64,000 nucleotides of DNA from Lunularia cruciata. Lineage: Eukaryota > Streptophyta > Marchantiopsida > Lunulariales > Lunulariaceae. The first letter of the stretch is position 1; every line of letters begins with the position of its first letter. Positions 18,131 to 61,531 of this stretch are shown in pieces. Under the pieces are notes generated by a model that had not been told where the DNA came from, ran no database searches, and worked only from the letters and a program-made list of their open reading frames with translations. The DNA is taken from positions 54,640,291 through 54,704,290 of the forward strand of contig OX419755.1 in NCBI GenBank assembly GCA_948567375.1, given 5' to 3'. The position numbers and the translations under genes are program-made.

Positions 18131-18135
18131 ACAAT

Positions 18136-22820: not shown

Positions 22821-22834
22821 TAGTACAGTAATTT

Positions 22835-24605: not shown

Positions 24606-24721
24606 TCAAGCGCAAACGATATAGGACTGAGTACTATAGTCTAAATTTTGCACCTACCAGTTAGGTACGCACAAACCCTCAAGGTTCAAGTTGCGGACTT
24701 AGGTGGGAGGTTACTATACTA

Positions 24722-41515: not shown

Positions 41516-42080
41516 AAGGATTTAATGGGGCATTAGACCCTCCTTCCTCCCACCCCACTCCACCCAACCCAACTCAACCCATATCCTTCTTCATCACGCA
41601 ATAGACTAATGGCTGTTAGTGAGGTCTTTTTGCATTTTGTTAGCTATATTATTACTATTGTTCTTTAAAATCATTCTCATTTCCAATAGCACCTCAATCC
41701 ACACCAGTTTTGAATTGCTACACATAGAGATTGTGAGGCTATAACTTTAGGCATTAGAGCACTCTTAGATATCCACCTAAAGTGGGTTGTTCTATAGGTT
41801 GTCATGCGTATATACATGGCCACACAACATACATCATTGTCAACATCACACACTATAGAAGCACAACTCACACATTAGTCATACATGGACTCTAAAGTAC
41901 CACAATCACCATCCTAGCTAGGAGTTAGGTCCTTCTAACTCCAGATAGCCATCAACTCCAAGTATATGGTATACCTTATGGTGGGCAAAATATCAAGAGG
42001 CTAGGTGCTATTGAGCCTCATTGTTAGTCGCCTATCTGCAATCTATACCATATAAAGGATGAGCTAGCTATAGATCAAGT

Positions 42081-42215
42081 ACATCTAGGACATAACTACC
42101 TTCCTTGAGGAACCACCATGAGGGGAGGAGTCATACATGCCATATGCCATCCTCTCAAACAGCTATCACACACTAACATAGTAGCAGTTCCACCAAAAGA
42201 GCCACATAACATACA
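42081..42215 (-). pseudogene. PHD finger at the C-terminus of M2 polyprotein
   Basis: C4HC3 ligands at spacing C-x2-C-x11-C-x2-C-x4-H-x2-C-x14-C-x2-C: QCMLCGS, MLVCDSC, RGWHMAC, LCPRC. All eight ligands are present; only the conserved Trp before the last pair is a stop (TAG, from TGG). It follows the integrase C-terminal region (GVLVLEGCDGVVWKDH) and an extra CxxC (HNCASC). This occupies the place where chromoviruses have a chromodomain, so a targeting role is likely by analogy. Confidence 0.82.
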
Positions 42216-43250
42216 TTGCAAGCCTACATGTACAAGTGCCAAGCTTGGGTCCATAGTACCATCAATGTTTGGGAGGCGGCATGACGCACAATTGTGCACA
42301 TGATCCTTCCAAACAACACCATCACATCCTTCCAAAACAAGGACTCCAGATGGCAAAACCTTGTGCACTCTCAAGATAGTGCGGCATGTAGAAACATCAA
42401 GTGTCATTGGTGTTGTCTATTATAGATATACATAGTCATTAGATGAAATTGACGGATTGAGGGTCTATAACCTCCTCCTCAAATGGTTGCATAGTATAAG
42501 GTATCCTTATGTTGAGCAATCACTAAGTTCTCAAGGGCCATTGGCATCACTCTTCAAAAGATCTCTTCCCATTGAGAATATGCACTCATCCATACATCTG
42601 GATTATCCACGTCCAACACTACGATAGCATCTCAACAAATGGCTATAGGTAAATTTGGATCTTGTCCATAAAGTAGAAAGTAAGGAGAGAAGGATGTTAA
42701 GGAGGCTTGCTAGCTGAATCAATAACCCATGGCCAGCCACGGTAACTAGAGATCCCAATCTCCCAAGTGGCATCTTTGCAAACCATACTTCCGCAATCCT
42801 TTCTTCACTATTTGAACCACTCTCTCTGCTAAGCCATTTGCCTCAAAGTGATGTTGAGAGGTACTATGATGATCAATCAAAGCCTTGTCATACAAGACCT
42901 GAAACTCCCTCAAGAATTATGTGCCCTAATCAGTCAAAACCTCAGTTGGTGCACCAAAATGACTAAGAACTTGATCCAGGAACAAGTAAGCTATCCCTTC
43001 ATTGGACATGTTAGGAAATACCACCAACTCAATCCACTTGGAGATTGCACCACCATCACCAAAATTTACCAATGATGTCTCACAATCAATGGTAAAGGTC
43101 CAGCAAAGTCCAAACTCCAACGGTAACCCAATCCCATGATAGGTAATGGGTGTAACTTTGGCTTATGAGCATTAAATGATGCTCTAACTTGGTCACAAAC
43201 CACACATCTGGCAACAAACCTCTATACATTGGTTTGCATACTGTGCCACC
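42216..43250 (-). pseudogene. M2 integrase
   Basis: From 43120 the minus strand reads FTIDCETSLVNFGDGG, SKWIELVVFPN, VLSHFGAPTEVLTD (core with catalytic Asp), then, through frameshifts, HHPEADGLAERVVQ (core glutamate region) and FSPYFLLYGQDPNLPI, then VMPMALENLVIAQHKDTL leading to the PHD region. A broken but complete Ty3/gypsy-type integrase. Confidence 0.78.
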
Positions 43251-43931
43251 AATAATGACTTTGGAGTAAGCTACATGTATGCTTTACTCCAAAATGTCCT
43301 AGCTCCTCCTGAGCATGAAAAACCAACTGTGGTCTTTGAGGTGGAAGTGGTACTACTCTCACTCTACCATCCTCCCATACACAAAGAAGGTGTCTTCCCT
43401 CCAATTGAACCACCTAGTTTGTTGAAGAACACAATCTCTCCTTGGCCCTACCTGTGCCACCCACAACACCAATGCAAAGATAGTCCATCACTAAGACATC
43501 ATTATGAATGTCTCATTGAACTATACCATTATCTCCACTCTTTGGATTTGTGACCTCAATAACTCCTCTTGTATGTGCTAAGAGCGTAAAATTTATACAA
43601 AGAAAGGCAAATGCATGCCAATCTGGCACCATCTCCTCATCTATCTCACCATGCCAAAGTGCTCCGGTCTGATCTTGTTGGCTAGGACATGGGTTTCTAC
43701 TCAACCCATCTGCATCACGGTTCACCACCCCACGTCTGTGAATACTTGTGAAATCATACTCGTGTAAAATCAAAGCCCATCGTGCAAGCTTCCTTGAAAG
43801 CTTGTCAGAATCCATCAAGCACTTCAATGGTTTATGATCAATGATGAAAGTAAAGGGATTACCAAATAAATAACATCAAAAATGTGCATCAGAAATGTAC
43901 ACATACTGCTGCCAAGCACTCTCCCTCATAT
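43251..43931 (-). pseudogene. M2 RNase H C-terminal part and integrase zinc-binding region
   Basis: Minus-strand frame 43513-43827 reads RKLARWALILHEYDFTSIHR then GVVNRDADGLSRNP, the RNase H end of gypsy elements (N-x-x-AD-x-LSR). 43222-43413 contains ELGHFGVKHT, the start of the integrase HHCC region. Confidence 0.78.
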
Positions 43932-44675
43932 TGTAATACTAAGAGCTAGCCATATGATCTAGATGTGAAATTTGGTTTGGTAACATCTGGAATGATGTTA
44001 TACATGATGTTCAAAATAGATCAGATAGAAGTATCACCAAAAGAGTACTTCTACTAATAGGGTAGAAACCAAAATAGACTTAAAAACTTTAGAACCAATA
44101 GCTAGACATATGATTTAAAGGTGAAAATTGGTTTGGTAACATTTGGAAGGATGTTACACATGATGGATTAAACAAATCAAAAAGAGATATCACCAAAAGG
44201 GGACTTCTACTAATACAAGAGGAACCAAAATATGCTTGAAATCTTTAAAGGCAATTTTGGAGGCCTAAATAGATGAATTAGGCCTCAAAAACATGCAAGT
44301 CCCCCCCCCCTTCTTAATGAAAGAAAGGTTGGCCTTCCCTCCCTCCTAGTTTTTCTTGTTGAGAGCTTTCCAATGGTACCTCACCCACGTGATTATGAGA
44401 TTCCTATAAGAAGATTCCCTAAAAGATTCCCTCTAGTCAAAGCTTGTTTGACCAACCAGATAGGACCAGGACCGACTTGTCACCCATCCAAGTAAGTAAT
44501 CCATGGGTGGAGCTTGCTAACATGTCACCTATCTGTGTGCCTAATCCTTTGGTGGAGCTTCCTTGGAATAGATCCTCTTTGTCTATATAATAAAGAGAAG
44601 GTGCTCCTTTGGCGCATCGGATGATTGAGTGTGAAATCTGTGTTTTCTCTCTTCTCTTGTCCTTGGAGTATTACA
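43932..44675 (+). repeat. Solo LTR, chromovirus family LTR-1, in M2
   Basis: 744 bp, TGTAATACTAAGAGC...GGAGTATTACA, flanked by CATAT (43927-43931 and 44676-44680). M1 has the empty site, a single CATAT at 3189-3193. The sense-strand promoter element TATATAATAAAG is intact at about 44584-44596. A C10 tract at about 44299 is the complement of the family's G-rich tract. Confidence 0.93.
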
Positions 44676-44680
44676 CATAT

Positions 44681-45560
44681 AAACTATACTTTACCTTTGT
44701 TGAATTGTTAGAGCAACTAGCATAGCCCACCACAAACTCCTTCCTCTCATCATCATGTTGGGTGAGCATTACTCCAAGCCCCAACATGCTCCAATCATTG
44801 TGAACCTGAAATGGTCGTCCTCTGCTCAATCTCCTCCAGATAGGAGTAGATGTCAACTTCTCCTTGAGCTCTACAAAACCTCTCTCCTGGTCATCTCCCC
44901 AACACCACTCCTATGTAAGCTTGGTCAGCTTTGTCCAAGCCTTAGCAATAGCATTAAATCCTCTAACATAGCGGCAATAGACGTTTGCCAACCCAAGGAA
45001 TGCTTGCACTCTCCTCACATTTGTAGGCTAAGGAATACGTGCAATAGCTTCCACCTTGGTCTGTTGAACACCAAGTCCTCTAGGGTAGATAATGTGACCC
45101 AAATATTCAACCTGCTCATGGAAGAACCTACACTTCCCAAGATGTAATTTGAGTCCATGAGATCTCAACCTCTCAAACACCTCCAACAACACTATCTCTC
45201 ATGCTCCTCCACAATAGTGTTATAGGCCAAAATATCATCAATATAACACCAACCAAAATCCAATCCAGCTAGGATCCTGTCCATGACCCTTTGGAACTTG
45301 GCAAGAGCATTCTTTAACCCAAATGGTAAGAACCTCCATTGATATAACACATCCTTGTTGTGAAGATCAATAGCCCAAAATGTTGTCTTGGACTTATCCT
45401 CCTCTCTAATTGGCAATTGATAATATCTTGCTCAAAGATCCAAAGTATTGAAGGCCTTTGCATGCCCAATCGTATCGGAGATCTCCTCTAGTGTAAGCAT
45501 GGTATACCAATTAGCCCTAGTCTGTCAATTGATAGGACGGTAATCTCCACACATCCGCCT
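44681..45560 (-). pseudogene. M2 reverse transcriptase and RNase H start
   Basis: Minus-strand frame 45192-45416 reads FWAIDLHNKDVLYQWRFLPF (RT block), KNALAKFQRVMDRILAGLD and CYIDDILAYN, with an intact YIDD catalytic motif. RNase H begins at 44671-44856 (FQVHNDWSMLGLGVMLTQHD). Stops interrupt between blocks. Confidence 0.82.
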
Positions 45561-46249
45561 ATCTATGTAGTTGCCATGCATATTTTTCTTGGCTGGTATC
45601 AATGTAGTTGATGCATACTCTCTATGTGAAATCTCCACCAAACCAGCCTCAAAAAGGTCATTACTTTGACTCTTAATCAATGCGCTCTCCATGTCATTAT
45701 ATCAATAGGGATGTAAAAAATTGGTGTATCACTAGTCAGCTCAATTCATATACCAAGTCCTTTTAGAGCACCCAAATCCTTCATACTAAAGGCAAAACAA
45801 CTTGTGTAGCCACTCAAGAACCTCCAAACCCTCTGTCTTTCCTCTCCTATAAGCTTGGGTCCAAGATTAGGCTCCCAAGTATCCTCTATAACTATCTAGG
45901 AGTGGAAGACATATTGATTGGTTGCTACACCTTGGGACCCTTGGGAGGAATAGTGTCATACTCTCAATCACTAGAAGTCCTAGCCTTAGTGTGAAAAACT
46001 CCCTCTTATCTGGCTACAAGCTCCATACATCCTCTAATTGCATCCAAAGTAGACCAAGGATGTAATCCAAGTAGCCTATGCTCACTTGGATGGACTCCAA
46101 GTAGACCACTCTCCCTAGTAGCCATTGGATGTGTCCCAAGAATACCTTGTCCACTTGGTCCATTGCCCCCAGCATGTGCTTGAATTGTCTCAATAGACAC
46201 AAAGCTCACAAGTGTCCGGGTGTTGATGCCTATCAAGTGCATCTTACGT

Positions 46250-47275
46250 TGCTATGCCAAACCAAGGCTAACAATCCAGGTCAAACAATTTGAGTCTATA
46301 GCCTGACCTAACACCTAACGCCTAGATGTCTTTGACACTACTAGAACAACAATAATACTAGTGCAAAAACCCATTGCTTTCTCTCTCTCATTGGCATTGG
46401 GCTCCACCAACTATTGGAATTGTGAGCCCAAACCAATCCAGGACCTCCTTCTCAAAAAGCATGAGAGCCTGAGAAACTCATAAGTGTGAGAAAATTAGCT
46501 CTGGGTTGTCCAACTAGGTTCACCCCTACCATAGGTGACCTATCAACCACTACCACTATCTAAGACTGACGCCCAACATCCAAGATATCATCAACAATGA
46601 TGTGGTCTAATTGTTGAATCTCATCATAAGTGCAATATATAACCTCTCTTTGTAAGAGGTTTATCCACCAAAAAAAAGACAATGACCTTGTGATCCCACT
46701 CTAGTTGCATCTAACAACATGGTAGGTCCCATCCAAGAATGGACCTGATATGTACTTGCTACCACTCGGGTGTGAGAATCACCCATCAAAGGGACATTCT
46801 CCAAAATGTAAGCTGGAGAAACGGACTAATGAACATGGAGAAGTCATAGTATACGTAACATCTCCCAAAACACACTAGAATATGGATCCTAAAGACCAAA
46901 ACCTTGGCTAGCACATATATCCTTGACATGGCCACCCAAAAATCACCAAATGAATGGGTCCATGTCTCTCTAGATCATTCACCCCTAATAAGGAAATATT
47001 TGCTGGTAGGGCCTTTTGGTAACCCACAACTACTAACATCAATAATAACTCAGAATACCAATAGGCCAAGTGTGCCACCTGATGTAGAGAGACTTGCCTA
47101 GCAATCTCATCTCTCTTCCCATACAAGTAACTTTGTACTCCTATACCCGCTTGTAATACCAAAGCTAGTCTAGTGCTAATCTCACCAAATAACTCCAATA
47201 AACATACTCCCTCTATTGGATACTACCAAACAATGAGTGTGGTATCAAGAGGTGTTAAGGTAATTGACTCTAGAG
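46250..47275 (-). pseudogene. M2 cytosine-C5 DNA methyltransferase domain (best copy)
   Basis: Minus-strand frame 46908-47198 runs without a stop from motif I (ELFGEISTRLALVLQAGI) through KRDEIAR (motif II) to VIFGWPCQG (motif IV); the catalytic Cys codon is 46926-46928. After two stops the frame continues to VFWEMLR, then ILENVPLMGDS (motif VI, 46790-46801), then MGPTMLLDATRVGS and, after a frameshift, WWINLLQRE (motif VIII region). A linker with QQLDHIIVDDILDVG follows, then a C-terminal block near 46256-46460 matching the EPNANERE...VLGQAM region of M1. It would transfer methyl groups from SAM to cytosine C5. Position between protease and RT places it inside the polyprotein. Now inactive. 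Confidence 0.85.
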
Positions 47276-48420
47276 GCTCATCCTCACACCAGTCCCCTAG
47301 TGGTACAAAGGCTCCACTCCAAGCCTGTTGCACCAATTGATCTACATGTTACTGCAATGCCTCCTCTAAACTCCACAAAGGAACATCCAAGGTGGAGAGA
47401 ACAATCCCACACTTGCTTCAAATCTGAGTGTTCTTCTTTGGTACTATAGTACCCTCTGTATGGGCATTCTACTCCAATAAATCACCAAGCCAAGTAACAA
47501 AATCACTAAAAGTTGATGCCGCCATAGTCTCAAACTGTAGTGAGCCAAGACTGCCATTGTTGAAGCGTACTAGTAGGCAATATACTTGTCCCTTACTAGA
47601 CTGCCAACCTGGTCTATCGGAGGCTATCTCCTCCCAATAGTCAATATTGAAACCCATGGAGTATAACATTGCTCTCACAACTAACACATCATACGACTCA
47701 ACTATGGTTGCAATGGCTTGAGCTCTCACCATAGAGCTATCAATTGGATGACCGGGCTGAATTTGAACAACCAACTCTCCACATGTGATGTATTGTGTAG
47801 AGCCATCACCTAGAGATATCTAGATTTGAAAATGACACCTCTCCACATCAGTCTTCTAAAACTCCAGACCGACAACTACATTCTTCCCCAACATAAGAGG
47901 CGCCAAAGTCTAATCAGACCCTCTATGGTGTATAAACCTTCCCTAAAGGTCCCACTAACCAAAAAATCCCCCTTTGGTTATCCAACAGGACAACCCTAGG
48001 TGTAAACCATGGTCACTCAAAGGCCAATCTAGTTGGTAACTCCTCCAATCTAGCCGTTACTGCTTGCTATAAACCATTGGTCACTAAGTAGATCCTATGC
48101 TCTTCAATCAAGTTAGCTCCACTATCAACCACCTTTGCTTTGGTAGTAGGGCCCACATCATCCATACTCTCACAAAGCATGGCAGCCAATTGGAACAATG
48201 GGTTTGGGTCAACTCCCAATGTACGTATATCATTAGTTAAGAATAATGGAAAGTGCATAATCAGCTTAAACGCACCCAACATTGTGCTAGACTCAATTTG
48301 TGTAGTTGCAGGTAGCTGACTAGTAGGTAGTCCATCATGCACCCCATCACCACCTACCACACCTGCACTAGAACATCTAGGAGCCATGGATGACGTTTAT
48401 AGTGCCTCAAAGAGTGTAAA
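47276..48420 (-). pseudogene. M2 aspartic protease region
   Basis: The minus strand contains ESYDVLVVRAMLYSMGFNID and ASDRPGWQSSKGQVYC (47469-47774), matching M1 and M3 downstream of the protease active site. The active site aligns with M3 near 47950-48000 but is decayed. Confidence 0.65.
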
Positions 48421-49184
48421 AGACTAGGGAAGTCTGACTTGTCTACTAGCCTCTCCTCTCTATGGGTCCAACTCTGTTGATGCTCCTCTAGGCTCTGGAG
48501 CACGTACTGCACTCCTAGTCACTACGGTAGATGCATCTACTTGTGCTGCTCCACATATGAAATCCAATGTGTCTCTATCACTAGCATATGAGGTGGAAGC
48601 CTCAGCATCCGAATCTAATCTCCTCGGAGCTATGGCCGTGCTAGCCAAACTCTAATCCAACTGCTCAATGCAAGTAGCTATGGTTGTATCAGAAGTAAGA
48701 GCCGATATTGCACCTCTACTAGGTGTGGATCGTCTACCACCTCATCTTCCATGACCTGGAGTTCCTCTACTACCTGCCATAGCAGCCCTACCACTCTGTT
48801 ACTATGGGTGTAGGTCAAAGCACCGATCACTAGTGTGAACATATCTATGGCAATACTCACATTGTCTTTGTGCTAGTTATGATGCACTAGAGGTATTGGG
48901 TGCGCTGCCCTGAGAGCACTCTCTCCTGTGATGAGGTCCACCATAAGTCCAACAAGCAACACCACCACTCATTGGCTATTGCTGACCCAACAATGAAAGT
49001 AAGGGTCTAGCTACAACTCCACTCGCTCCATAAGATTTGGGTTGTCCACCTTGTTTTCAAAAACCAAAATGGCCTGGTGCACTCTACTGCACTCTGGAAG
49101 AAGTAAATACTATGGATGAGGTCTCCCTACCAAATCTAGATGTCACCACTCTCTCCTCCACCATGTTGAGCTGAATATGCTCAA
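48421..49184 (-). pseudogene. M2 gag C-terminal part
   Basis: Matches M3 61560-62400 in reverse complement. Includes the region of the zinc knuckle (near 48800-48860, ligands decayed). Ends at the CTCAA duplication of the chromovirus; gag resumes at 55817. Confidence 0.65.
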
Positions 49185-49958
49185 TGTAATACTCTGAGGA
49201 CAAGAGAAGAGGGAAAACATAAATTTCACACTTAATCCTCCAATGCCTCAAAGGAGCACCTTCTCTTTATTATATAGACAAAGAAGATCTCCTCCAAGGA
49301 AGCTCCACCATAGGATTAGGCACATGGATAGGTGACATGTCAACAAGCTCCACCCTTGGATTACTTACTTGGATGGGTGACATGTCAGTCCTGGTCCTAT
49401 CTGGTTGGTCAACCAAGCTTTGACCGGAGGGAATCTTTTAAGGAATCTTCTTATAGGAATCTCAGAATCACGTGGGTGAGGTACCATTAGAAAGCTCTCA
49501 ACAAGACAAACCAGGCCTTTCATTTATTGGTGGAGGGGAGGGGAGGGGAGGGGAGGAGGATTTGCACATTTTCAAGACCTAATTCATTTTTTTAGGCCTA
49601 TGAAAGTGCCTTCAAATATCTGAGGCATATTTTGGTTAGAAATCCCCTTTTGGTTAGAAATCCCCTTTTGGCATATTTTAGTAGAAATCTCCTTTTGGTG
49701 ATATCTCTTTCTGATCTATTTAGCCCATCATATTTAACATCCTTCTAGATGTTACCAAACCAATTCTCACCTTTAAATTATATGTCTAGCTATTGGTTCT
49801 AAGGTTTTCAAGTCTATTTCAGTTTTTGCCCTATTAGTAGAAGTACTCTTTTGGTGATAATTCTATCTGATCTAATTTTCCATCATGTATAACATCATTC
49901 CAGATGTTATAGAACCAAATTTCACATCTAGATCATATGGCTAGCTCTTGGTATTTCA
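49185..49958 (-). repeat. 3' LTR of the chromovirus
   Basis: 774 bp; TGTAATACTCTG at the left, GGTATTTCA at the right (canonical GGTATTACA). A GGGGAGGGGAGGGG run at 49533-49557 and a duplicated TTGGTTAGAAATCCCC segment (about 49633-49670) make it longer than the 5' LTR. Confidence 0.92.
49533..49557 (+). repeat. G-run tract in LTR-1
   Basis: Four or more GGGG runs separated by single A; fits the G-quadruplex consensus. Related but less regular G-rich tracts lie at the same LTR position in other copies (4850-4895, 27376-27395; C10 at 44299 on the opposite sense). Confidence 0.75.
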
Positions 49959-49973
49959 AACCTCCCTCCTTTT
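49959..49973 (-). other. Polypurine tract of the chromovirus
   Basis: The minus strand reads AAAAGGAGGGAGGTT directly before the 3' LTR start, the plus-strand primer position for LTR elements. Confidence 0.85.
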
Positions 49974-49989
49974 AAGATGCAACGTACTC

Positions 49990-50175
49990 GTTGTGCAGCT
50001 ATTGCTCAAACGCTTGTACCAACACCTGTGCATGCGTCAAATTGGCAGCAAGCTCCTGAGTTCCCTCATGGAAGGAATAACCTTTCCACTATACCAAATA
50101 GTCCACCCGTAGATGGCGATTACCACGCATGTGTTTTTGGAGGATATGTTCCACTTCATATTCCTTCGTGCAATC
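49990..50175 (-). pseudogene. Chromodomain of the chromovirus integrase
   Basis: The minus strand reads EYEVEHILQKH, LRVDYLV-stop-WKGYSF, a chromodomain with its aromatic positions (Y, W, Y) recognisable; one TAG sits before the W. Chromodomains of chromoviruses guide integration to methylated-histone chromatin. It follows the IHPVFHVSLL motif at 50193-50420. Confidence 0.85.
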
Positions 50176-51300
50176 AATGAGTGTCGAACAGGTCAAAGGT
50201 CTTGTGTGGAATGATAGTGGCCCAATCGGGAAGCATATTTACATAGTAGGGAAACATGGAACACTGGATGGATTTTCATGTGTGGTGGTAGCTTGAGGTG
50301 ATAGGCCATAGCGCCAACTTGACAAAGAATAGAAAAAGGCCCAATAAAACAAGGTTTGAGCTTATGAAGGCCAACTAATGTGCCAGCCACACATTGTTGG
50401 TTGGTTGTAGCCAACCACACCTAATCCCTAACATTGATGATTTGGCAATTTTATGCAATCTACAATCTGTGCTTGGCGCTCTCTACACCTTGTTGGATTC
50501 TAGAAACAAATGTGTTGATTGTGTCAACCTTGGTAGCCATCGGACGGATCTTCATTAAGCTAGAAGATGTGAAGGGATGCTCACCATACATGAGGAAGAA
50601 TGGAGTTACATAGGTGGATGCATTCACCAAATTGTTGTAAGCAAATTCCACCAAGGAGAGTAGGGTGTCCTACCTCTCTTACTCTTCTAAGGGGAAACCA
50701 TGCAACATGTCTTCAATAGTGCTATTAGCCCACTTTGTTTGTCTATCTGTTTGTAGGTGGTAAGCTGTGGACATGGCCAACTTGGTTTTGAAGAAACTTA
50801 AGAGTGTTTGCCCAAACAAATTGGTGAATTAAGTGCCTCTATTGGTGATGAGTACTTGAGACAAGCAATGGTGAGAGAAGACTGCATCTAAGTATAATTG
50901 AGCTAGTTGTGGAGCAATCACATCCTTGGTGGTAGGGCATACATGAATCATTTTGCTGAGCCGGTCCACAAACACCACAATGGAGTAAAACCTTGAGGTG
51001 GTCTTGGGTAATTCACAGACGTGATCCATACTCACATATTGCCAACATTGTGTATGATTGGAGAGAGGTTGAAGGAGCTTGCAGGAGCTTGATTAGAAGC
51101 TTTGTTTTGTTGATAGAGTAGGCAATTGTGTACGTAGTCCATCACATCATTGCTCATCTTGGGCCAATAGTAATGGCATTGGACTACATCCAAGTTCTTG
51201 TCCACTCCGACATGACCTACAATGGCCAAATCATGACATCAATCATGACATAGAATGGTGGTGCATAATTTTGAGACATTTGGGATCCATAATCTACCAT
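50176..51300 (-). pseudogene. Chromovirus integrase
   Basis: Minus-strand blocks in order: GHVGVDKN and CLLYQQNKAS (zinc-binding region, 51032-51229); SMDHVCELP and SIVVFVDRLSKMIH with the first catalytic Asp (50829-51035); EFAYNNLVNASTYVTPFF (50460-50654, N-terminal Met-Val omitted); GPFSILCQVGAMAYHLKLPP and HPVFHVSLL (50193-50420). Stops break the frames. Confidence 0.88.
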
Positions 51301-52027
51301 CACAAAAAGGTGAGTCCTTAGGTGCTTGTGATGCCTTTGGATGATTGCACTCTTGTAATCTATGGATCAATTTTTGTAGTAGCTAGAATCTCTAGCCAAA
51401 ATTCACGGTTAACCTTAACCTCTACCACCAAATTGTTTGCCATTGGCATGCAAGTGAATGCATCTGCAAGTTGCTTTTTATGTCCCACATAGGTAATTGT
51501 CATGTTGAAGTATTGTTGCCACTCTGCACATCAAATCTGGCGATGAGATAGATCTTGTTGTGTCTCAAGGTAGACTAGAGGTCTGTGGTATGTCTCTACT
51601 ACAAATGCCTTCTTGTCCAGATAGTGCTTCCAATGCTTGGTTGCAAGGACAATGGCCAACTCTTCTTGTTCTATGGTGTGATAGTTGGGCTCTATCGGTA
51701 ACAAATTTCAAGAGAATATGCAATTGGATGTCATCCGTCATGCCACTCTTGTTGTAGGACTGCTCTTATTGCTACGCTTGATGCATCTATAGCCAACTTG
51801 ATTGGACATTTTAGGTCATACCACTTCAAGATTGGTGCAAGTAGCAAGGCAAATTTCAATTCTTGAAAGGCTAACTCTTGTGTGGTTCTCCACGTCCACT
51901 TCTTCCCCTTGCCAAGTAGTGCCATTAAAGGTTGTGCACCTTTGGAGAAGTTCTTGATAAATTGATGATAAAATACTGTCAACCTCAAGAAGCTCTTGAG
52001 TTGAGTCTGATCTTCTGAGCACTCCAT
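51301..52027 (-). pseudogene. Chromovirus RNase H
   Basis: Frame 51731-52027 reads FLRLTVFYHQFIKNFSKGAQ, then LMALLGKGKKWTW and IKLAIDASSVAIRAVLQQ (the first RNase H Asp). The rest of the domain to 51300 is decayed. Confidence 0.82.
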
Positions 52028-53055
52028 TTTTGAATGACCTCTATTTTATCTATCAATAATTGAATACCATCTACACTTACTCTATGCTCCAAGTAGTCTA
52101 TTTCAGATTTGCCAAACTTGCACTTTGAGATTTTGGCATACAATTGATTCTATCTTAGAATCTGGAGGACTTCTTGTAGATGTTATTTGTATTCACTCAT
52201 CATGCCACTATTTAGTAAGATGTCATCTAGGAAGACGATAACAGACTTATCCAAATCTGGACAAAATATGTCATTCATTTGACTCATGAAAGTGGCAAGT
52301 GCATTGGTGAGGTCAAAAGGCATCACGAGATACTCAAAGTGGCCATACCCGGTTCAAAAGGCAGTTTTGTACACATCCTCCTCTGCAATTTGGATTTGAT
52401 TGTAACTACTCTACTAATCCAATTTGGTGAAGTATCTTGCTCCATGGAGTTGATCAAATAGGTCATCCATGCAAGGTAAGGGGTATTTTTTCTTCACTAT
52501 TTGCTAATTGAGGCCTTGATAGTCAATGCACATGCATATTGTACCATCTTTCTTCTTTACAAACAAGACAGGAGCCCCATATAGTGATACTTTGGGTTGG
52601 ATGAACTCTTTTTGCAACATATCCTCAATTTGAGTATTATACTCCTCCAACTCATGAGGTGATAGGCAATATGGGGCCTTACAAGGAGGTGTCTTCCCTG
52701 GGAGTGTCTCAATTTTATGATCTACTCTACTTTTTGGTGGTAATCTTGAGGGTAGATCATCAAGAAAGACATCTTGAAACTCATCCACCACATCCTTCAA
52801 TTTCTTAGGAATTTGTCCAACAAGTTGTGCACTTTGGACTTCTCTTATTAGACCTATGAAACATCTATTGGTCTTATAGATGGAAACCGTCTTTATAACA
52901 CAAAGAGGCAGTTCTTGCCTATGTGATTTTTTTGTAATCCTAATGATTGGCCATTGGTGGGTTTTCACTACTTTCTTCCTCCAATCTACCATAGGGTTAT
53001 AATGCTCCATCCATTGCATGCCTAAGATTACATCATAACAAGCTAATTGTATCAC
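52028..53055 (-). pseudogene. Chromovirus reverse transcriptase
   Basis: Frame 52504-53055 contains YDVILGMQWMEHYNP (end of protease region), VVDEFQDVFLDDLPSRLPP, EDMLQKEFIQPKVSLYGAPV (RT start) and VKKKDGTICMCIDYQGLN. The active-site part (52030-52500) is broken by stops. Confidence 0.85.
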
Positions 53056-53062
53056 TTGCCAC

Positions 53063-53326
53063 TCAATTGCTTCTTAATATTCTCCTACAAAGAGTGTAAC
53101 AATCTTTGTAATCCTCTAGGTAATGATTCAATCCTCTCTGTTTTCCCATTAGTAACTCTACTTCTTTGCTCTCATCTCTCTCTAGATCTATTCCCAATCT
53201 TATTGCAATAGAGGGAGACAAGAAATTCTTTGTTGCTCCTGGATCTATTAATACTCTCCCTTGATTACCTTTTAGGACTCCATTCACAACAATCAATTGT
53301 GAAGTGGCCTTTTGGGACCTTTGCAC
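53063..53326 (-). pseudogene. Chromovirus aspartic protease
   Basis: 87-codon minus-strand frame with RVLIDPGATKNFLSPSIA, a DxG active site (DPG) in the position of the usual DSG. Follows the gag knuckle and precedes RT. Confidence 0.82.
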
Positions 53327-53508
53327 GCTTGTCTTCTTCCTTCCCTCACTTCTCTATTGCCTTATTGAGCCAGTAAGGCTGCAAGGTACATTTACTAGTG
53401 ATCTTTGTTTTTTGAAGTGATTTCCATCTCTTCCTTTTTAGTGCATCTTTCCATGTTATTCAAAGATCATCTATATGAAGGCCAAGGGCCTCTAGGAGGA
53501 CAAGCACG

Positions 53509-53550
53509 ACAATGGGTAGATTTGTGCTCAATACAGCCACAATTGTAACA
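53509..53550 (-). other. CCHC zinc knuckle of chromovirus gag
   Basis: The minus strand reads CYNCGCIEHKSTHC, all four ligands present at C-x2-C-x4-H-x4-C spacing. Confidence 0.92.
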
Positions 53551-55071
53551 AAGGTATTGTTCTCCTTGAGTTCCTTCTCCTTGTGGGACTCCATCTCTCC
53601 ATTCTTCTACCCATCCACGCTCTCCTTGAAGAAGTTGTGCTCCTTGGTCTTGAAACCAAAAGGTTGTCCAATTCCATCAATATTGGTCCACCCATATATG
53701 GCATTTCTATCCAATAATGTTGAGGTTGAACTACTCCTTCACCTCCACCTAATGCTCCTACTATTCTCTAGGGCACAAGCAATGGCTTCAAATACTATGC
53801 GAGGATTTTGTACCATGCTTTCTTGGCAAATCCGCTCCTTTATCCCTCGTTTGAAATTGTTGAGAGCATCTACTGGACTCATGTCGGTTATTGCAACTTG
53901 TGGATCCAAAAATGCTTCCATATACTCTTGTACTTTGTTCTTTTGTTTCAATCCCCATAGTCAGATCCGGACCATTTGCACAAAATCCATCGACTAGAAA
54001 TTCTTCATCAATCCTTCTTGCATTACTGTCCACATGACCTCCCTTCTCTTTGCCAACATGGATTGTTCCTATGCATTGTACCATGTGAGGGCCTTATCGG
54101 TCAAGTACCTACATGTAAACATGCTTGTAGCATGCTAAGTGATCTTTGTTGAGAACAATCAAAAATATTGATTCATTCTTGAGATCCAATTTTCCACTAC
54201 TCCCATTGTACGTTGCTACTTGTAAGGCTCAATGTTGCAAGTTTTCTTCATCCGGAGTAGCAATGTGGCTTCATTGTTAACCGGGTTTGTAGGCACGGGT
54301 GGCTCTCTAAGTACTTTAATCATAGGTACTAGGTTTTGCAACGGCTCTCTTCATGCATTGCTTGATCATTCCTAAGGATCTACACTTGACTTTGTAATTC
54401 CTCCATGGTCATCTTAATCTCTCAAAATTTATTCAACATCCCTTGTATTCCTTGCACCAGCTCCTGCCATTGCGGATCCATGGGTCATGCAACACTCAAT
54501 CACCATTGTCTACTTCAATAGAGAGTTAATATGATCACTTTGGAGGGCGCACAAACTATCGGGACTACCATTGGGACCTTAGAAGCTATCACTCGTTGAT
54601 AATACTCCTCACCAAAATTTCTAACCACAAAATCTTGAAACATCACTTTTGGTCTCATTACATAATAAATTTCTATTTGAGTGTTGAAAGGAAGAGAATT
54701 TGGGACATTCACATCCATAGCATCATAATATAATGTAGATTATCAAATCACACTCTTTGTCATATACCGCCATAGGTAGAATCACCGGGTTTGGTGAATT
54801 CATCACTCTATCCATGAATTCTGCTCCAAAATGATAAACTAGTTATACTCTCATTTGTTCATGTTGGATGTACATAATCTTCATATGGAATGGATTCAAG
54901 AATGGGAAGATAGGTGCAGGAAATTTTACTCTCGGTGCATCCATCCCATCCGCTCTCTAAAGCCCTTCCCAAGTCTAGCAATTACTCTATGTTCTCCACC
55001 TCAAATTACTTGGTTTTAGTAGTTTGTGCTCTTCCAAGAGGGGTGATCCACTCTCTTGGATAAATATACTT
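53551..55071 (-). pseudogene. Chromovirus gag
   Basis: Minus-strand frame 53739-53951 reads VQEYMEAFLDPQVAITDMSP then VDALNNFKRGIKERIC, the retrotransposon gag core. The N-terminal part runs toward 54720 in other frames. Matches copy C2 at 25796-27015. Confidence 0.78.
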
Positions 55072-55083
55072 GCTTTGATACCA
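55072..55083 (-). other. Primer-binding site of the chromovirus
   Basis: TGGTATCAAAGC on the minus strand one base after the LTR end; one mismatch to the tRNA-iMet site TGGTATCAGAGC found in copy C2. Confidence 0.88.
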
Positions 55084-55084
55084 C

Positions 55085-55816
55085 TATAATACTACAAGGA
55101 CAAGAGAAGAGAGAAAACATAGATTTCACACTCAATCCTCCAATTCTCCAAAGGAGCACTTTCTCTTTATTATATAGACAAAGAGGATCTCCTCCAAGGA
55201 AGCTCCACCATATGATTAGGCACATGGATAGATGACATGTCAGCAAGCTCCACCCTTGGATTACTTACTTGGATGGGTGACATGTTGGTCCTGGTCCTAT
55301 CTAGTTGGTCAACCAAGCTTTGACCAAAGGGATCTTTAGAGAATCTTCTTGTAGGAATCTCAAAATCACGTGGGTGAGGTACCATTGGAAAGCTCTCAAC
55401 AAGATAACCTAAGGGGGAGAGAAGGCCAGACTTACTTCCACTAAGGGAAATATTTGTACATTTTTGAGGCCTAATTCATCCGTTTAGGCCTCCAAAATTA
55501 CCTTCAAAGATTTCAAGCATATTTCAGTTCATACTCTATTAGTAGAAGTCCCTTTTGGTGATACCTCTTTTTGATCTATTTAGTCCATCATGTGTAACAT
55601 CCTTTTAATGTTACTAAACCAATTCCACCTTTAAATCAAATGTCTAGCTATTGGTTCTAGGGTTTTCAAGTCTATCTGAATTTTTGCCATATTAGTAGAA
55701 GTGCTCTTTTGGTGATACTTCTATCTGATCTATTTTGTTCATCATATATAACATCATTCCAGATGCTACCAACCAAATTTCACATCTAAATTGTATGGCT
55801 AGCTCTTTGTATTACA
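55085..55816 (-). repeat. 5' LTR of the chromovirus
   Basis: 732 bp, TATAATACTAC...TGTATTACA; first dinucleotide mutated TG to TA. TATA region TTTATTATATAGA at about 55165. Confidence 0.92.
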
Positions 55817-55821
55817 CTCAA

Positions 55822-56035
55822 CCAAACCAAAGACCACTGCCAAAGTAAGCGAAGTGGCCTGTAACAACCTAACATCACAAACTCTACTTTGCAATTCCTT
55901 GTCCAAAACTTGATTGCTTAGGCCTCAATAACTCCCTAAGTAAAACTGATCAATTGTCTCATTCAAGTGTATGCCTTGCGTAGGCACTCTCTAGCCTCCA
56001 TTGGAACTCCTACAAGCTCCTCAATTTGTCAGTCT
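55822..56035 (-). pseudogene. M2 gag fragment right of the chromovirus
   Basis: Continues M2 gag from 49179. The sequence matches M1 22540-22760 and ends where LTR-2 copy C begins; the N-terminal gag is missing. Confidence 0.65.
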
Positions 56036-56722
56036 TGTAAGACCTAATTGTGCATGTGTGTGGTATTGTAATATTTAGCTTGGTATTATAAGTACTTGAG
56101 AGATATTATTTATATAGATAAAGGATGGTTCTATATTAACCATGATTAGCTAAAGTTAGTCACAGCTAAGTTAGAGTGGATGTTACTTTAGAGGAAGTGG
56201 AAAAGATGAGCACCACTATTTTGGATTCTAATGTGTTGACTTGGTATTATTCTTAGGTGTTTGGCTTTGAGGAAAATGTTGAGAACTCTTGGGCCCGCAA
56301 GCCTCTTTGTTTTGGATTCTTTTATAGTCCAAGGATAGCCCATATGAAGGAATCCTTGACTTAGTGGTTGGGTCAAGATAAGACCACATGCTTAGAAGAA
56401 TATTCCTATGAGTATGGATATTTCTTTAGCTTTTTGACTTTACTTGACTTGTAACCTAGTAACTTGAGTTATTATGGTAAATAGTAACTTTAGTGCATAA
56501 CTATTTCACAAGTACATAAACAAAGGGTGAGGAGTTACTTAACATCCCTTCATTTGCAACTATCTCTCTCATTGAATTCTCTAGTGAGCAATGGCTTGAG
56601 TCTTGGAGTGTTAGCCTTGGAGGAGTATGATGGAATTAGGGTTCTTTGCCTTCTTAGTCCATTGTGCGCTACCATAATAGCCATCATAGGTTCATCATGA
56701 GTGAGAGACAGACCGACTCACA
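56036..56722 (+). repeat. LTR-2 copy C
   Basis: 687 bp, TGTAAGACC...GACTCACA. Directly after it lies TTTGGTTTTGTTGTCGAGAC, which looks like a C-to-T-decayed version of the TGGCGCCGTTGCCGG-type primer site of some gypsy elements. It may therefore be a 5' LTR rather than a solo copy. Confidence 0.7.
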
Positions 56723-57258
56723 TTTTTGGTTTTGTTGTCGAGACATCTCTAGAAGGCAAGATAATATTTTGCATACAATTCTATATTAGACAAAATAAGG
56801 TTATGAGAGCTCAATTGGAGAGAACATTAGGAGAGGAGATGGTTTATGTTAAAGAACCAAAATCCATTTTTATACCTTGTAGTTCATTATGATGTCTTTG
56901 AGGTGATTTTGTACATCTTGTACACATGAGAGGATTTGAAGAGATTGTGTGAGGTGGATTGAAGAATTTGGGGATTACGGTGATTTTGAGCAAAATCTCA
57001 AGTTTGAGATCTGGACTTGAAATTTCTACACATGATAGCTTTCAGTTAGTACACTTGAAATTATTGTGAAAATTACTATGTGCATTGAGCTAGAATTTTT
57101 GAAAGTTGATAGGGTAAATTGTCCGAAGTTTGCCATTTCTTCAATTTTCAATGGATTGTTTTGAAATTTTCCAAGAAAATTTAGTGCACTGTATCCTATC
57201 TTTTGGCATAAAAATTAAAGAGAGATTTATGCAGCTCTTGATTTATGAGGATGGAGTG
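56723..57258 (+). other. Possible internal start of the LTR-2 element
   Basis: Begins with the primer-site-like sequence. No clear gag domain; small frames only. Ends where sequence matching the inverted M leader starts (about 57259). Confidence 0.4.
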
Positions 57259-58163
57259 TCTAATTGGTCATCACTCCAACCTCACATTCAAGAGCACACC
57301 AGAGCACACCAGAGCACCAACGTTCTAAATTCAATGCATCTCACACAAATATGGTGTACAAATAGGAAGTAAGGAATGGAGGATGTCCAATCACAAGAAA
57401 GCTAAAAAAAAACCCTCAATCTTACAAATAAACACTGGATTGACACTGCCACCATTTGGCATTTGATATAATCAAAATACCTATCTACTTCTTGAGCTAC
57501 GAGGATCACCAAGAATTTCAAAGTTCTTCTTGCCAAAATTTGATGTAAATCCTTCACAAAAATTGACATAAATCTTATGTAAAGCCCTAAAGTTAATTGA
57601 TTGCTAAATCATCCGCTAACTCTTCCCTTGAGCTAAAATGGAAAGATGGGGATTGTCAAATCTCTAATTCATGAGAATAGATTCTCAACTCCACCTTCAA
57701 TTTCACTATCTGAGCTCAACTTGCACTAGATTGCTTGTATTTTCACCTCTTGAGCGCAAAATCACAACTACCGCTTGAAATCAAATCTCTCTAGCTCCAA
57801 ATTTGGCTAACGCTTTTGCACACAATCACTCCCAAGGAATTAGAACTACGATCAAAGTACCATGATCCAACGGGCTTGGAGATACCACCACCACCCTCAA
57901 TTCTTGTACTTGATTTCTCCTTGACTATCACTTCTTTGTTGTAAATAGATTAGTACTTGATCTGTCACTCAACAATCTACCAACAATTGTGCACTAATTA
58001 CAGTCAAGCCACACCCACTCTAACTAAGAGACTCTAGATGGAACTCGTCGGCTTTCTATCCACTTTAGTTAGGAACTCGAAGGCTCAACAACAGTGAGCT
58101 CTCTAGAACTACACTCCTAGGGTATATTCTTGATTTTGACCTAGGTATCACCCCAATGGTCCA
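57259..58163 (-). repeat. Inverted, internally deleted M LTR plus leader
   Basis: Reverse complement matches 58355-59725 of M3, with about 470 bp less. It may be the 5' LTR and leader of M2 (correct strand and side). It abuts the M3 LTR head-on at 58164. Confidence 0.7.
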
Positions 58164-59530
58164 TGTCATGCCATTTGTAGTATCACATCTAGATTGCTGG
58201 AGTTCCAATGATAGTAATTAGAGTTATTTCAGCAGTTTCTCAAAGACTACTTTCCGACGGTCAGATTTTGTGTTTGGGGTATTGACTTCACGGTGGGGCC
58301 CACCATCACTTTGCACCATTTGCACCGTTTGCACCGTCGGGTGTGCCATCAGCAAGACCGTTAGGGTTTCAGTCCTAGCTTGAGTCCAAGGGTATACTTT
58401 TGAAGTGCAACTCTAGAGAGCTCACTTCTATGATGTTGAGCTTTCGAGTTCCTGGCTATGGTGGACAGAGGCCGGCGAGCGTCACTTGGATTCTCTTAGC
58501 TAGAGTGGGTGTGGCTTGATTGTAATCACTGCCCACTTGTTGGCAATTTATAGAGTGATAGATTAAGTACTGATCTAAGTTGAGTGTATTTGAGAGTTGT
58601 AAACAATCTGATTACATCAAAGAAATGAAGTCTGGTGGAAATTGGGTGCAAGAACTTTGAGTGTTGGTGGTATTTCCAAACTCGGTAGATAGTTGGTAGC
58701 TCAATTGAAGTTTAGTTTTTCCCTAGTGTGCAGAAGTTTGTTCAATTGATGCAAATTTGGCAATAAGGTAGACGGTGTGCGGAAGCACTAGATAATTTTT
58801 TAGCACAAAAGAACCAATTTTTGAGCAGTGGTTGTGATTTTGAGCTCAAGAGGTGAAGGTAGGACCAATTTGTTGCGAGTTGTGCTCAAAAAGTAAAATT
58901 GAAGGTGGAGTTGGGAAGCTATTCACGTGAAGTTGTGATTTGGAGAAACTTGTGTTTTCAATTTGGCTTGAGTGAAGAGTTAGCGGGGGATTTGGTGGTC
59001 AGCCAAATTTAGGGTTTATATCAGATTTTATGTCAGATTTTGGCTGGATTTTATGTTAGATTTTGGCTAGATTTTATGTCAGATTTTGGCCAGATTTGGA
59101 GGACTTTTGCTAATTTGGAGGAGTTTCACCAGATTTTGGAGGAGGTTCCAAGTGGCAAGAAGAAAGACCTCATTTGGCATTTAGAGGCTTTGAGGCATAG
59201 GGTTATGGGCTATGAGAGGCTACAAAGGCCTAGAAGGGCAACAAGCAAGCTTGTTGGCGTGAGGCTACCTAGTTTAGAGTAGATCTTGGTCATTGGTTGG
59301 CAAAATCTGCCCATACTGCTAGATTGTGCGCAATAGGATTTGATCCCTAGATCTCTTGTTCCTAGATTGGTTCCCTAGCCAACTAGTCCACCCTCATTGG
59401 TTGTCCTAGTGACTGTGCCATTGTTATTTGTACACTTGTAGCTTTGGCTAGGAGAGGTAGTTTGATCCCATTCTTAGTAATCTTGGTAGCTTAGGACTTA
59501 GATACAAACTTCTCTTATGTCAAATGCCAA
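58164..59530 (+). repeat. 5' LTR of element M3
   Basis: Starts TGTCATGCCATTTG. The right end is uncertain: a TGGTGGCAGAGTC sequence near 59532 is a candidate primer site. Carries sequence shared with the M1 LTR (384-830) and the inverted copy (57259-58163). Confidence 0.55.
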
Positions 59531-60060
59531 ATGGTGGCAGAGTCAGTCTCGTGTTGTTTTATGAGATGAAGGGTTTTTGTTTAGATTTCTTGTGATTGGA
59601 CTCCCTCCATTCTTTGCTTCTTGTTTGTGCACCACGTTTGTGTGAGGTGCCCTGACTTTTGAGCATTGATGCTTTGGTGTGCTCTTGGTAGTGAGGCTAG
59701 AGTGACGACCAATCAGACTATCTTTGTTTCTCTCCGGTGAGGTAGGAAGTGATGACTTGCAGACATGAGAGTGCATGTTGTGATAGCTAGTTATAGATTG
59801 TCATTTCCCCTAGTGTAGTTATCTTAGTTAGAGTTACATTAGTGCGTGGTGTTCCATGGGTATTTGCACTTGGGTGTGCTTAATTGGTGTTGGCACTTGG
59901 TGGGGTACTTGCAGTCGCAACTTGCGGTTGCAATTTATGGTTTTGGTTTGTGGTTACTTTGTCACAACAGAGTTTGTTGGGGATTCCAAAGGAGTTAGCC
60001 TTGCATTACGCAGTGGGTTTACTCGGAGTGGCACTCGGTATCAACCTGTATCTTAGGTCC
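59531..60060 (+). other. M3 leader
   Basis: Between the candidate primer site and gag. No clear protein; part of it (to about 59725) is matched by the inverted copy at 57259. Confidence 0.5.
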
Positions 60061-60792
60061 CAATGAGAGAGGAGATTGACTCTGAGTTGGAGTTTGACAC
60101 AGGAGCTGATTTAGTTGAGAGTGCACTTGGTGTGTCCGCACCATTGTTGTGAGACATGGATGAGATTTATGGGGCCTCTAAAGTTCCTAAGCGTTACTTT
60201 GGTACAGTGGGTACCATTGAGTTGGATGACTTCATGCAAGAGTTTGATAGTTGGTGTGATCTGCAGCAGATGCGGAACCCAACTTTGTTTACACCCTTCA
60301 TGGCATGGAAGGAGTTGTTTCAGCATTTGGAGGGTCCACCAATGGATGACTACCATGAGTTTAGGAGAGCTCATTTGGAGGAGATAGTATTGGTCTTTGA
60401 ACTATGTCTCTTTAACTTTAGGTTCAATGGCCAAGAGTAGATTGGCCGTACCTACGAGGTCTAGCTTGAGTAGTGTTGGTGGAACTAGTGGAGGTGCACT
60501 AGCTGGAGATAGTGTTACCACGAGTGGAGGTACCGTTGCAAGAGGTGGTGTGGTATCGGGGTTTAACCCCATGGTGGAGTTCTTATTGTGTTTGAGGTAG
60601 AACTACCAAGGAGTGCAGACTGACAAGTTGAGGAGCTTGCAAGAGTTCCAATGCAAGGTTGGAGAGAGCCTACGCAAGGCAAACACTTGCATGAGGCGGC
60701 TGATCAGTTTCACTCATGGAGTTACTTAGGCCCAAGTAGTCCAATTTTGGTATGGGATACTAGATAGGGAGTTGTGATGTAAAGTTCGTGAT
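60061..60792 (+). pseudogene. M3 gag N-terminal part
   Basis: Plus-strand frame 60156-60440 reads MDEIYGASKVPKRYFGTVG, TIELDDFMQEFDSWCDLQ and DYHEFRRAHLEE. Sequence near 60540 (GGGGTTTAACCCC) is the unbroken version of the Tigger target in M1. Ends at the solo LTR. Confidence 0.7.
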
Positions 60793-61531
60793 TGTAATAC
60801 TCTGAGGACAAGAGAAGAGAGAAAACACAAATTGCACACTCAAACATTTGATGCCCCAAGGGAGCACCTTCTCTTTATTATATAGACAAAGAGGATCTCC
60901 TCCAAGGAAGCTCCACCATAGGATTAAGGACACAGATAGGTGACATGTCAGCAAGCTCCACCCTTGGATTACTTAGTTGGGTGGGTGACCTGTCTGGTCT
61001 AGGTCCTATCTGGTTGGTCAAACGAGCTTTGACCGGAGGGAATCTTTTAGGGAATCTTCTTGTAGGAATCTCAGAATCACATGAGTAAGGTACCATTGGA
61101 AAGCTCTCGACGAGACAAACCAAGGAGGAGGGAAGGCTAGCCTTTCCTCTGTTGGGGGGGAAATCTGCACATTTTTGAGGCCTAATTCATCCGTTTAGGC
61201 CTCCGAAATTGCCTTCAAAGTTTTCAGGCATATTTCGGTTCCTACTCTATTAGTAGAAGTCCCCTTTTGGTGATACCTCTTTCTGATCTGTTTAGTCCAT
61301 CATGTGTAACATCCTTCCAGATGTTACCAAACCAATTCTCACCTTTAAATCATATGTCTAGCTATTGGTTCTAAGGTTCTCAAGTCTATTTCGGTTTCTG
61401 CCCTATTAGTAGAAGTACTCTTTTGGTGATACTTCTATCTGATCTATTTTGACCATCATGTATAACATCATTCTAGATGTTACCAAACTGAATTTCACAT
61501 CTAGATCATATGGCTAACCCTTGGTATTACA
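60793..61531 (-). repeat. Solo LTR, chromovirus family LTR-1, in M3
   Basis: 739 bp, TGTAATACTCTG...GGTATTACA, flanked by GTGAT (60788-60792 and 61532-61536). M2 shows the empty site (GTGAT in reverse complement near 55878). Confidence 0.93.

What the first reader, a model, noticed from the sequence alone, without database searches (positions are those of the whole stretch)
46250..47275. A Ty3/gypsy family that encodes its own cytosine DNA methyltransferase between protease and RT
Three copies (M1 18830-19935, M2 46250-47275, M3 63330-64000) share FGG motif I, ERDE motif II, PCQ motif IV, LLENVPLMG motif VI, a WWxNLL block and, in M1 and M2, an LGQAM C-terminal block, always on the coding strand and after the protease. 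M2 retains motif I through the catalytic PCQ in one open frame. Methyltransferase-bearing retrotransposons have, to my recollection, been reported from dinoflagellates and charophyte algae; this family may be an undescribed or poorly described land-plant-lineage case. A self-encoded methyltransferase could mark element DNA or reshape silencing.
Basis: partly seen in the sequence, partly recalled or inferred. Interest (0 to 1): 0.92.

Follow-up and report, generated by a model that had tools for sequence, protein, structure and literature searches.

The report
Liverwort retrotransposon with own DNA methyltransferase
A family of jumping genes in a liverwort genome carries, between its protease and its reverse transcriptase, an enzyme of the kind cells use to mark and silence jumping genes; similar elements were known from algae, and this one extends the trick to land plants.

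Summary
The three window stretches belong to three decayed Ty3/Gypsy elements with a C5-cytosine methyltransferase (MTase) next to the protease. The 566-Mb genome, almost surely the liverwort Lunularia cruciata, holds many open copies: gag-protease-MTase, an in-frame UAG (16 of 16 distinct genomic copies where the site was found, plus 2 of 2 window copies that reach it), then RT-RNaseH-integrase-PHD finger. Ends are split direct repeats (A1 ... B1-A2-B2) with 4-bp target duplications. The MTase is DNMT3-class (profile E 2.7e-24 to DNMT3A, 1.3e-11 to DRM) and nearly as conserved as RT. Relatives occur in Marchantia, Riccia, Calypogeia and Sphagnum; a second, algal group carries the MTase between RNaseH and integrase. 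The kind is known (KnitGypsy-Dnmt3 of the alga Klebsormidium nitens, with the same split repeats). New here, as far as my searches show: the land-plant range, the conserved UAG, the PHD finger and the two domain orders. Best guess: the MTase, made at Gag level, marks the element's own new DNA. That function is inferred, not shown.

The parts
279..25100 (-). Element E1 (holds M1), decayed and split by later insertions; 3' end near 279, 5' part near 25100
   Evidence: blastn of open copy L038: pieces at 279-1593, 1607-1851, 2597-4054, 18135-22826 and 24746-25100
18836..19891 (-). M1, MTase of E1, dead (stops in motif IV, an extra 72-nt stretch)
   Evidence: 80.5% DNA identity to L038; tandem repeat 19458-19618
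18517..18519 (-). UAG between MTase and RT in E1, followed by GAA CCA
41800..58115 (-). Element E2 (holds M2), decayed and split by insertions
   Evidence: blastn pieces 41800-43931, 44676-49183, 55813-56034, 57258-58115
46237..47216 (-). M2, MTase of E2, dead; open frame 46911-47222 from motif I to PCQ
   Evidence: 83.8% DNA identity to L038, frameshifts
45925..45927 (-). UAG between MTase and RT in E2, followed by CAA CCA
45528..45701 (-). Start of the RT region of E2 (open piece with the MCGDYRPIN block)
   Evidence: translation; L038 alignment; Pfam gave no match to this short piece
47895..47916 (-). Protease active-site region of E2 (5-nt deletion)
58164..64000 (+). Element E3 (holds M3), 5' A repeat at 58164-58614, cut by the window end
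   Evidence: blastn pieces 58164-60792, 61532-62457, 62454-63999
61916..61957 (+). CCHC zinc knuckle of E3, CEHCHRFGHTSDRC
62681..62707 (+). Protease active-site region of E3, LLDFGAQPL (open copies LLDSGAQPL)
63392..64000 (+). M3, MTase of E3 (stop in motif IV), truncated by the window end
   Evidence: 88.6% DNA identity to L038

Best explanation
SHOWN BY SEQUENCE: the three copies are dead members of a high-copy Ty3/Gypsy family of a liverwort. Open members read gag-CCHC-protease-MTase, a conserved in-frame UAG, then RT-RNaseH-DDE integrase-PHD finger, between split direct repeats (A1 ... B1-A2-B2) with 4-bp target-site duplications. The MTase is DNMT3-class, keeps the catalytic motifs and is conserved across species almost like RT. 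INFERRED: the UAG, in a TMV-like CAR-YYA context (rule recalled), is read through at low frequency, so MTase is made in Gag amounts, well above RT and integrase. In the particle or just after nuclear entry it methylates the element's new double-stranded DNA; host MET and CMT enzymes then keep the mark on the inserted copy. The element thus arrives pre-marked, which lowers its harm or its visibility to the host. The PHD finger, closest to CHD4/KDM5-like fingers (several read unmodified H3K4, recalled), would steer integration.
For: Open copies and layout. UAG: 16 of 16 distinct genomic copies, plus E1 and E2. DNMT3 class. Catalytic Cys in 216 of 219 readable homologues. Conservation: MTase 73% identical to Marchantia P0002 against 53-60% for gag, spacer, protease and linker, RT-RNaseH 78%; MTase and RT distances correlate in 91 algal-type proteins (rho 0.57, none of 999 permutations as high). 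Split repeats and target duplications. Decay of dead copies: C-to-T at CG 0.32-0.50 and CHG 0.30-0.40 against CHH 0.05-0.11, so inserted copies were methylated. SymbioDIRS-Dnmt3 enzymes methylate CG de novo in yeast (PMC5890265, passage).
Against: The methylation scars are the ordinary plant CG/CHG pattern and need no element enzyme. The K. nitens enzyme, the closest described kind, showed no activity in yeast, which its authors call inconclusive (PMC5890265, passage). Within this genome the shared-versus-single test is not significant for MTase (p 0.23) and the 12 copies had been chosen for open frames. Readthrough, packaging, activity and transcription are all unmeasured. PCQ replaces the PCN of DNMT3.
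Confidence: 0.55

Rival explanations
1. The MTase acts in trans on the host: it disturbs host silencing or methylates host genes, which helps expression of the family, rather than marking the element's own DNA.
For: High copy number and Gag-level expression, if the UAG is leaky, would give much enzyme.
Against: K. nitens, with such elements, has a land-plant-like methylome (PMC5890265, passage). Dead copies here show normal CG/CHG decay.
Confidence: 0.15
2. The MTase protects the element's DNA from a host nuclease or deaminase; silencing is a side effect.
For: Proposed for SymbioDIRS elements in PMC5890265 (passage). Such a role would explain conservation like that of RT.
Against: No such host factor was looked for or found here.
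Confidence: 0.15
3. The enzyme methylates RNA (genomic RNA or the primer) as DNMT2 does.
For: It sits beside gag, in the particle protein, by the inferred expression.
Against: DNMT2 scores far below DNMT3 (about 2e-5 to 1e-4 against 2.7e-24).
Confidence: 0.07
4. The domain is a dead structural part of the polyprotein.
For: Divergent loop in some algal rows (ECQ in place of PCQ).
Against: Catalytic Cys in 216 of 219 and motif VI Glu in 235 of 247 readable homologues.
Confidence: 0.04
5. The stretches are host methyltransferase pseudogenes that landed in elements.
For: The genome also has host C5-MTase genes, for example a DRM (L019).
Against: Same place and frame in the open copies, fused to gag-protease, and the same order in Marchantia.
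Confidence: 0.01

Closest known systems
KnitGypsy-Dnmt3 of Klebsormidium nitens (PMC5890265; abstract, passages and one figure legend seen)
   Same: Gypsy-type pol, a Dnmt3-class MTase in the polyprotein, DIRS-like repeat structure, conserved enzyme.
   Different: Here in land plants, high copy number, UAG between MTase and RT, PHD finger behind integrase; the paper's main text has no hit for moss, liverwort, PHD or readthrough. Position of its MTase relative to RT was not seen.
SymbioDIRS-Dnmt3 and SymbioLINE-Dnmt of dinoflagellates (same paper)
   Same: Retroelements with a C5-MTase; DIRS type has Dnmt3-class enzyme with activity in yeast.
   Different: Other retroelement classes; here a DDE integrase and target duplications.
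Algal Gypsy polyproteins found here, e.g. Scenedesmus sp. PABB004 pol (P0080)
   Same: Related MTase, RT, RNaseH, integrase and PHD finger.
   Different: MTase between RNaseH and integrase in one frame, not between protease and RT.
DNMT3A/DNMT3B
   Same: Best relatives of known structure; same linear motif order.
   Different: GWPCQ instead of GGSPCN at the catalytic loop; no PWWP or ADD domain reported by Pfam in the element proteins.
Chromoviruses (recalled)
   Same: Gypsy integrase with a histone-reader-type domain at its C-terminus.
   Different: PHD finger instead of chromodomain, plus the MTase.

Membership tests
KnitGypsy-Dnmt3 type | Gypsy-type RT-RNaseH-DDE integrase | tested here: met
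   RVT_1 E 5.8e-32, RT_RNaseH 3.1e-36, rve 1.1e-12
KnitGypsy-Dnmt3 type | Dnmt3-class MTase inside the polyprotein | tested here: met
   PF00145 in ORF1; DNMT3A best PDB relative
KnitGypsy-Dnmt3 type | DIRS-like split direct repeats | tested here: met
   B1/B2 in 11 of 11 and A1/A2 in 9 of 11 loci
KnitGypsy-Dnmt3 type | Purifying selection on the MTase | tested here: met
   Cross-species protein conservation; within-genome test not significant
KnitGypsy-Dnmt3 type | Groups with K. nitens copies in RT and MTase trees | not testable with these tools
   No protein named K. nitens among the listed hits
DNMT3 family | Linear motif order I to X, unlike DRM | tested here: met
   Alignments
DNMT3 family | PCN catalytic loop | tested here: not met
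   PCQ in this family
DIRS elements | Tyrosine recombinase, no target duplication | tested here: not met
   DDE integrase; complete 4-bp duplication in 7 of 9
Chromovirus | C-terminal chromodomain | tested here: not met
   PHD E 7.4e-10 and 2.2e-10, no chromodomain listed
TMV-type readthrough signal | UAG CAR YYA (rule recalled) | tested here: met
   15 of the 16 pattern hits (CCA 14, TCA 1; CTT in one)
Active DNA methyltransferase | Methyl transfer to DNA | not testable with these tools
   Only residue conservation

The most novel reading that the evidence does not exclude
An old retroelement lineage of green plants couples three devices: a DNMT3-class writer made in Gag amounts through a leaky UAG, an integrase with an H3K4me0-type PHD reader, and split repeats served by a DDE integrase. 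Together they deliver copies that are methylated at birth and placed in H3K4me0 chromatin. In Marchantia, whose published list of host enzymes has no DNMT3, the element would be the only source of DNMT3-class activity.
Probability: 0.2. Interest if true: 0.88.

Novelty: new variant of a known kind. Interest (0 to 1): 0.68.

Why it matters
Transposons are the targets of cytosine methylation; one that carries the writer turns the arms-race picture round. [quoted passage not shown] Here they are numerous in a liverwort and present in Marchantia, a tractable laboratory plant whose published list of five methyltransferases names no DNMT3 (PMC5784723, passage). That makes self-methylation directly testable. 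The two domain orders, MTase before RT and MTase before integrase, offer a natural comparison of how the enzyme is delivered.

Tried and rejected
Host pseudogene nested in elements: rejected (same frame and place in open copies, same order in Marchantia). DRM origin: rejected by score and motif order; no chain named DNMT1 or CMT was among the 56 listed. Phage origin: IMG/VR gave 10 weak loci at 27-39% identity, not followed. Pfam on 10 short window pieces: no PF00145. Four other window frames (two stretches): no Pfam match. Rfam on the window: 0 matches. The first selection script failed on a coordinate error and was corrected. AlphaFold2 model of relative P0162: mean pLDDT 68.6, pTM 0.75; fold comparison was not available, so no structural claim is made. 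An RT-anchored, MTase-blind count of copies did not complete.

Full report
WHAT IS IN THE WINDOW. Translation and alignment confirm three homologous stretches; M1 and M2 read on the minus strand, M3 on the plus strand. Comparison with an open genomic copy places them in three elements of one family: E1 (279-25100, -), E2 (41800-58115, -) and E3 (58164 to the window end, +), split by later insertions. All three MTases are dead. M1 motif IV reads G*PC*G, M3 reads GWSC*G, and M2 keeps PCQ but has FGE in motif I and a frameshift behind PCQ. Differences between E1 and E2 in the MTase fall at 72, 51 and 55 sites of codon positions 1, 2 and 3, so there is no third-position excess, as expected for neutral decay. 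Pfam on ten short window pieces found no PF00145.

OPEN COPIES IN THE SAME GENOME. The window lies in a 565.8-Mb assembly. A PF00145 search scored 123 of 2,161 first-look candidates, all 123 over the curated cut-off, many in frames of several hundred to 1,428 codons. A search with one MTase-bearing frame scored 71 of 17,636 candidates; all 71 were 95-100% identical to it, and 41 of the 71 had no internal stop. Both lists hold only the best candidates, so they say 'many', not how many. Of 15 stretches fetched, 13 hold element copies, one a host DRM gene (L019, DRM2 E 1.6e-103) and one a host-like C5-MTase exon that I did not classify (L020).

ANATOMY. ORF1 is gag, CCHC knuckle, protease, MTase (up to 1,428 codons stop to stop). 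ORF2 is RT, RNaseH, integrase zinc finger, DDE integrase, PHD finger (1,037 codons in L012 and L013). Pfam names RT, RNaseH, integrase, PHD and MTase; gag is only a weak match (E 0.06-0.07) and the protease is read by eye. The two frames are in phase, parted by one UAG. With the stop codon left open in the pattern, it was TAG in 16 of 16 hits, followed by CAG and then CCA (14), TCA (1) or CTT (1). together cover 16 distinct copies, L006 and L018 being one. E1 and E2 in the window also keep TAG, followed by GAA CCA and CAA CCA. This fits the CAR-YYA rule of TMV-type readthrough, which I recall and did not look up. Among 88 MTase-only homologues complete at the C-terminus of the domain, the protein ends at recurring distances behind it (74 aa in nine; 72, 81, 90 and 123 aa in four each), which suggests a conserved stop in other subfamilies too; 11 end directly at the domain, and contig ends could mimic some of this.

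ENDS. Eleven 10-kb stretches were refetched. They show an A repeat of about 450 bp at the 5' end and B1-A2-B2 at the 3' end, B being 102-110 bp. B1/B2 pairs were found in 11 of 11 loci and A1/A2 pairs in 9 of 11, 88-99% identical. The element starts TGTC and ends GACA. Read by eye, a 4-bp target duplication is complete in 7 of 9, agrees in the 3 readable bases of L041, and is absent in L037. The B1-A2 junction looks like a joined pair of element ends with two extra bases. The figure legend in PMC5890265 reports DIRS-like repeats for KnitGypsy-Dnmt3. Here they go with a DDE integrase and target duplications.

THE ENZYME. One open copy matches DNMT3A first among PDB chains (E 1.1e-10). A seven-row profile gives DNMT3A 2.7e-24, DNMT3B 3.5e-21, plant DRM 1.3e-11, HaeIII 4.6e-8, HhaI 1.2e-6, DNMT2 2e-5 to 1e-4. 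Motif order is linear. Across 267 aligned rows the catalytic Cys is present in 216 of 219 readable, the motif VI Glu in 235 of 247; in the 113 algal-type rows both are in 113 of 113. The Pro before the Cys is Glu in 48 of those 113.

SELECTION. Against Marchantia polymorpha P0002 the parts of ORF1 are 56% (gag), 53% (spacer), 60% (protease), 53% (linker), 73% (MTase) and 42% (tail) identical; RT-RNaseH against P0013 is 78%. MTase and RT distances within 91 algal-type polyproteins correlate (Spearman 0.57, none of 999 permutations as high), with medians 0.546 and 0.521. Among 12 open copies of this genome, variants shared by two or more copies give an observed/expected N/S of 0.42 for MTase and 0.43 for RT, singletons 0.60 and 0.57. 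The shared-single contrast is not significant for MTase (p 0.23) or RT (p 0.33), and the copies had been chosen for open frames. The case for selection therefore rests on the cross-species comparison.

METHYLATION SCARS. Against the open copies, E1/E2/E3 changed C to T at 0.50/0.42/0.32 of CG sites, 0.40/0.34/0.30 of CHG and 0.11/0.09/0.05 of CHH, while A/T sites changed at 0.086/0.062/0.024. Inserted copies were thus most likely methylated at CG and CHG, the usual plant pattern. This does not show that the element wrote the first mark. CpG observed/expected is 0.37-0.42 in the open copies and 0.11-0.19 in the dead ones; no gene baseline was taken.

RELATIVES AND HOST. Three protein searches gave 279 proteins (48 listed; 120 of 197; 120 of 161; overlaps removed). 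Named bryophytes are Marchantia polymorpha and M. paleacea, Riccia sorocarpa, Calypogeia fissa, Sphagnum fallax, S. troendelagicum and S. tenellum; named algae are Closterium sp. NIES-53 and Scenedesmus sp. PABB004. Domain order: RT-MTase with or without IN and PHD in 114; MTase before integrase without RT, fragments, in 21; MTase-RT in 9 (Marchantia 5, Sphagnum, Riccia, Closterium, one unnamed); MTase alone in 135. The MTase tree (59 rows) parts a bryophyte-type group (20 rows, 97/91) from the algal type (37 rows, 100/97), with Closterium P0045 and P0048 as long, unplaced branches. The RT tree (40 rows, algal rows thinned to 35) has the algal type as one group (36 rows, 99/96) and this family with Marchantia (100/99). 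One capture and a later move, or two captures, cannot be told apart. Eight chromosomes of 60-85 Mb and 565.8 Mb in all fit Lunularia cruciata: PMC12885004 (passage) gives 565.6 Mbp, and PMC9985172 (abstract and passages) puts that genome's size down to Ty3/Gypsy bursts. The host name is an inference; whether this family is one of those bursts was not tested.

WHAT IS KNOWN. PMC5890265 (abstract, passages, one figure legend) describes KnitGypsy-Dnmt3 with Gypsy pol, Dnmt3-class MTase, DIRS-like repeats and Ka/Ks under 0.2; 'moss', 'liverwort', 'readthrough' and 'PHD' do not occur in its main text, 'bryophyte' once, for host sequences. PMC6338049 (passages) says such transposons are not present in land plants such as tracheophytes. 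PMC12344493 (passages) mentions DNMT3s in retrotransposons as reported in 2018. PMC5784723 (passages) lists five Marchantia methyltransferases, no DNMT3. Passages of PMC9516144, PMC10952607, PMC6453930 and PMC8616336 added nothing on element MTases. Ten paper searches showed me no report of a bryophyte element with an MTase in their listings; subscription papers and preprints are not held, and I opened only the papers named here.

HOW IT PROBABLY WORKS. Shown: architecture, UAG, ends, enzyme class, conservation, decay pattern. Inferred: leaky UAG, hence Gag-level MTase; methylation of the element's own DNA; upkeep by host enzymes; PHD-guided insertion. The PHD finger's nearest solved relatives are CHD4, PHF12, KAT6A, KMT2D and KDM5-type proteins; that several of these read unmodified H3K4 is recalled. 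VERDICT: a real, recently active, selectively maintained family; a new variant of a known kind with a land-plant range.

Noticed in passing
window 1855-2595, 4515-5271, 27066-27770, 43931-44676, 49184-49959, 55087-55817, 60790-61532: Seven copies, either strand, of a repeat of about 745 bp starting near TGTAATAC and ending near GTATTACA, several of them inserted in the elements described; they look like solo LTRs of another family.
   Followed up: partly
window 21151-21829, 25096-25796, 56034-56723: Three copies of a second repeat of about 690 bp, 86-90% identical, lying within the span of these elements.
   Followed up: no
window 9324-13347 (-) and 34407-36071 (-): Open frames of 240-554 aa without a Pfam match; those at 9324-13347 lie in DNA inserted in E1.
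   Followed up: partly
window 19458-19618: An 83-bp tandem duplication in the MTase of M1 next to motif IV.
   Followed up: no
L038 9319-9983 and the same place in L036-L046: The B1-A2 junction (CGACA-GC-TGTCACG) looks like a stored circle junction; a CTGAT-TAC-ATCAG hairpin sits behind A1 where a primer site would be expected.
   Followed up: partly
MTase tree: Sphagnum troendelagicum P0177 groups with Marchantia (98/92) to the exclusion of this family and Calypogeia; old paralogues or transfer between bryophytes.
   Followed up: no
P0129: A protein named as from a Minisyncoccia bacterium MAG carries RT, integrase and PHD of the algal type; probably eukaryotic contamination of the bin.
   Followed up: no
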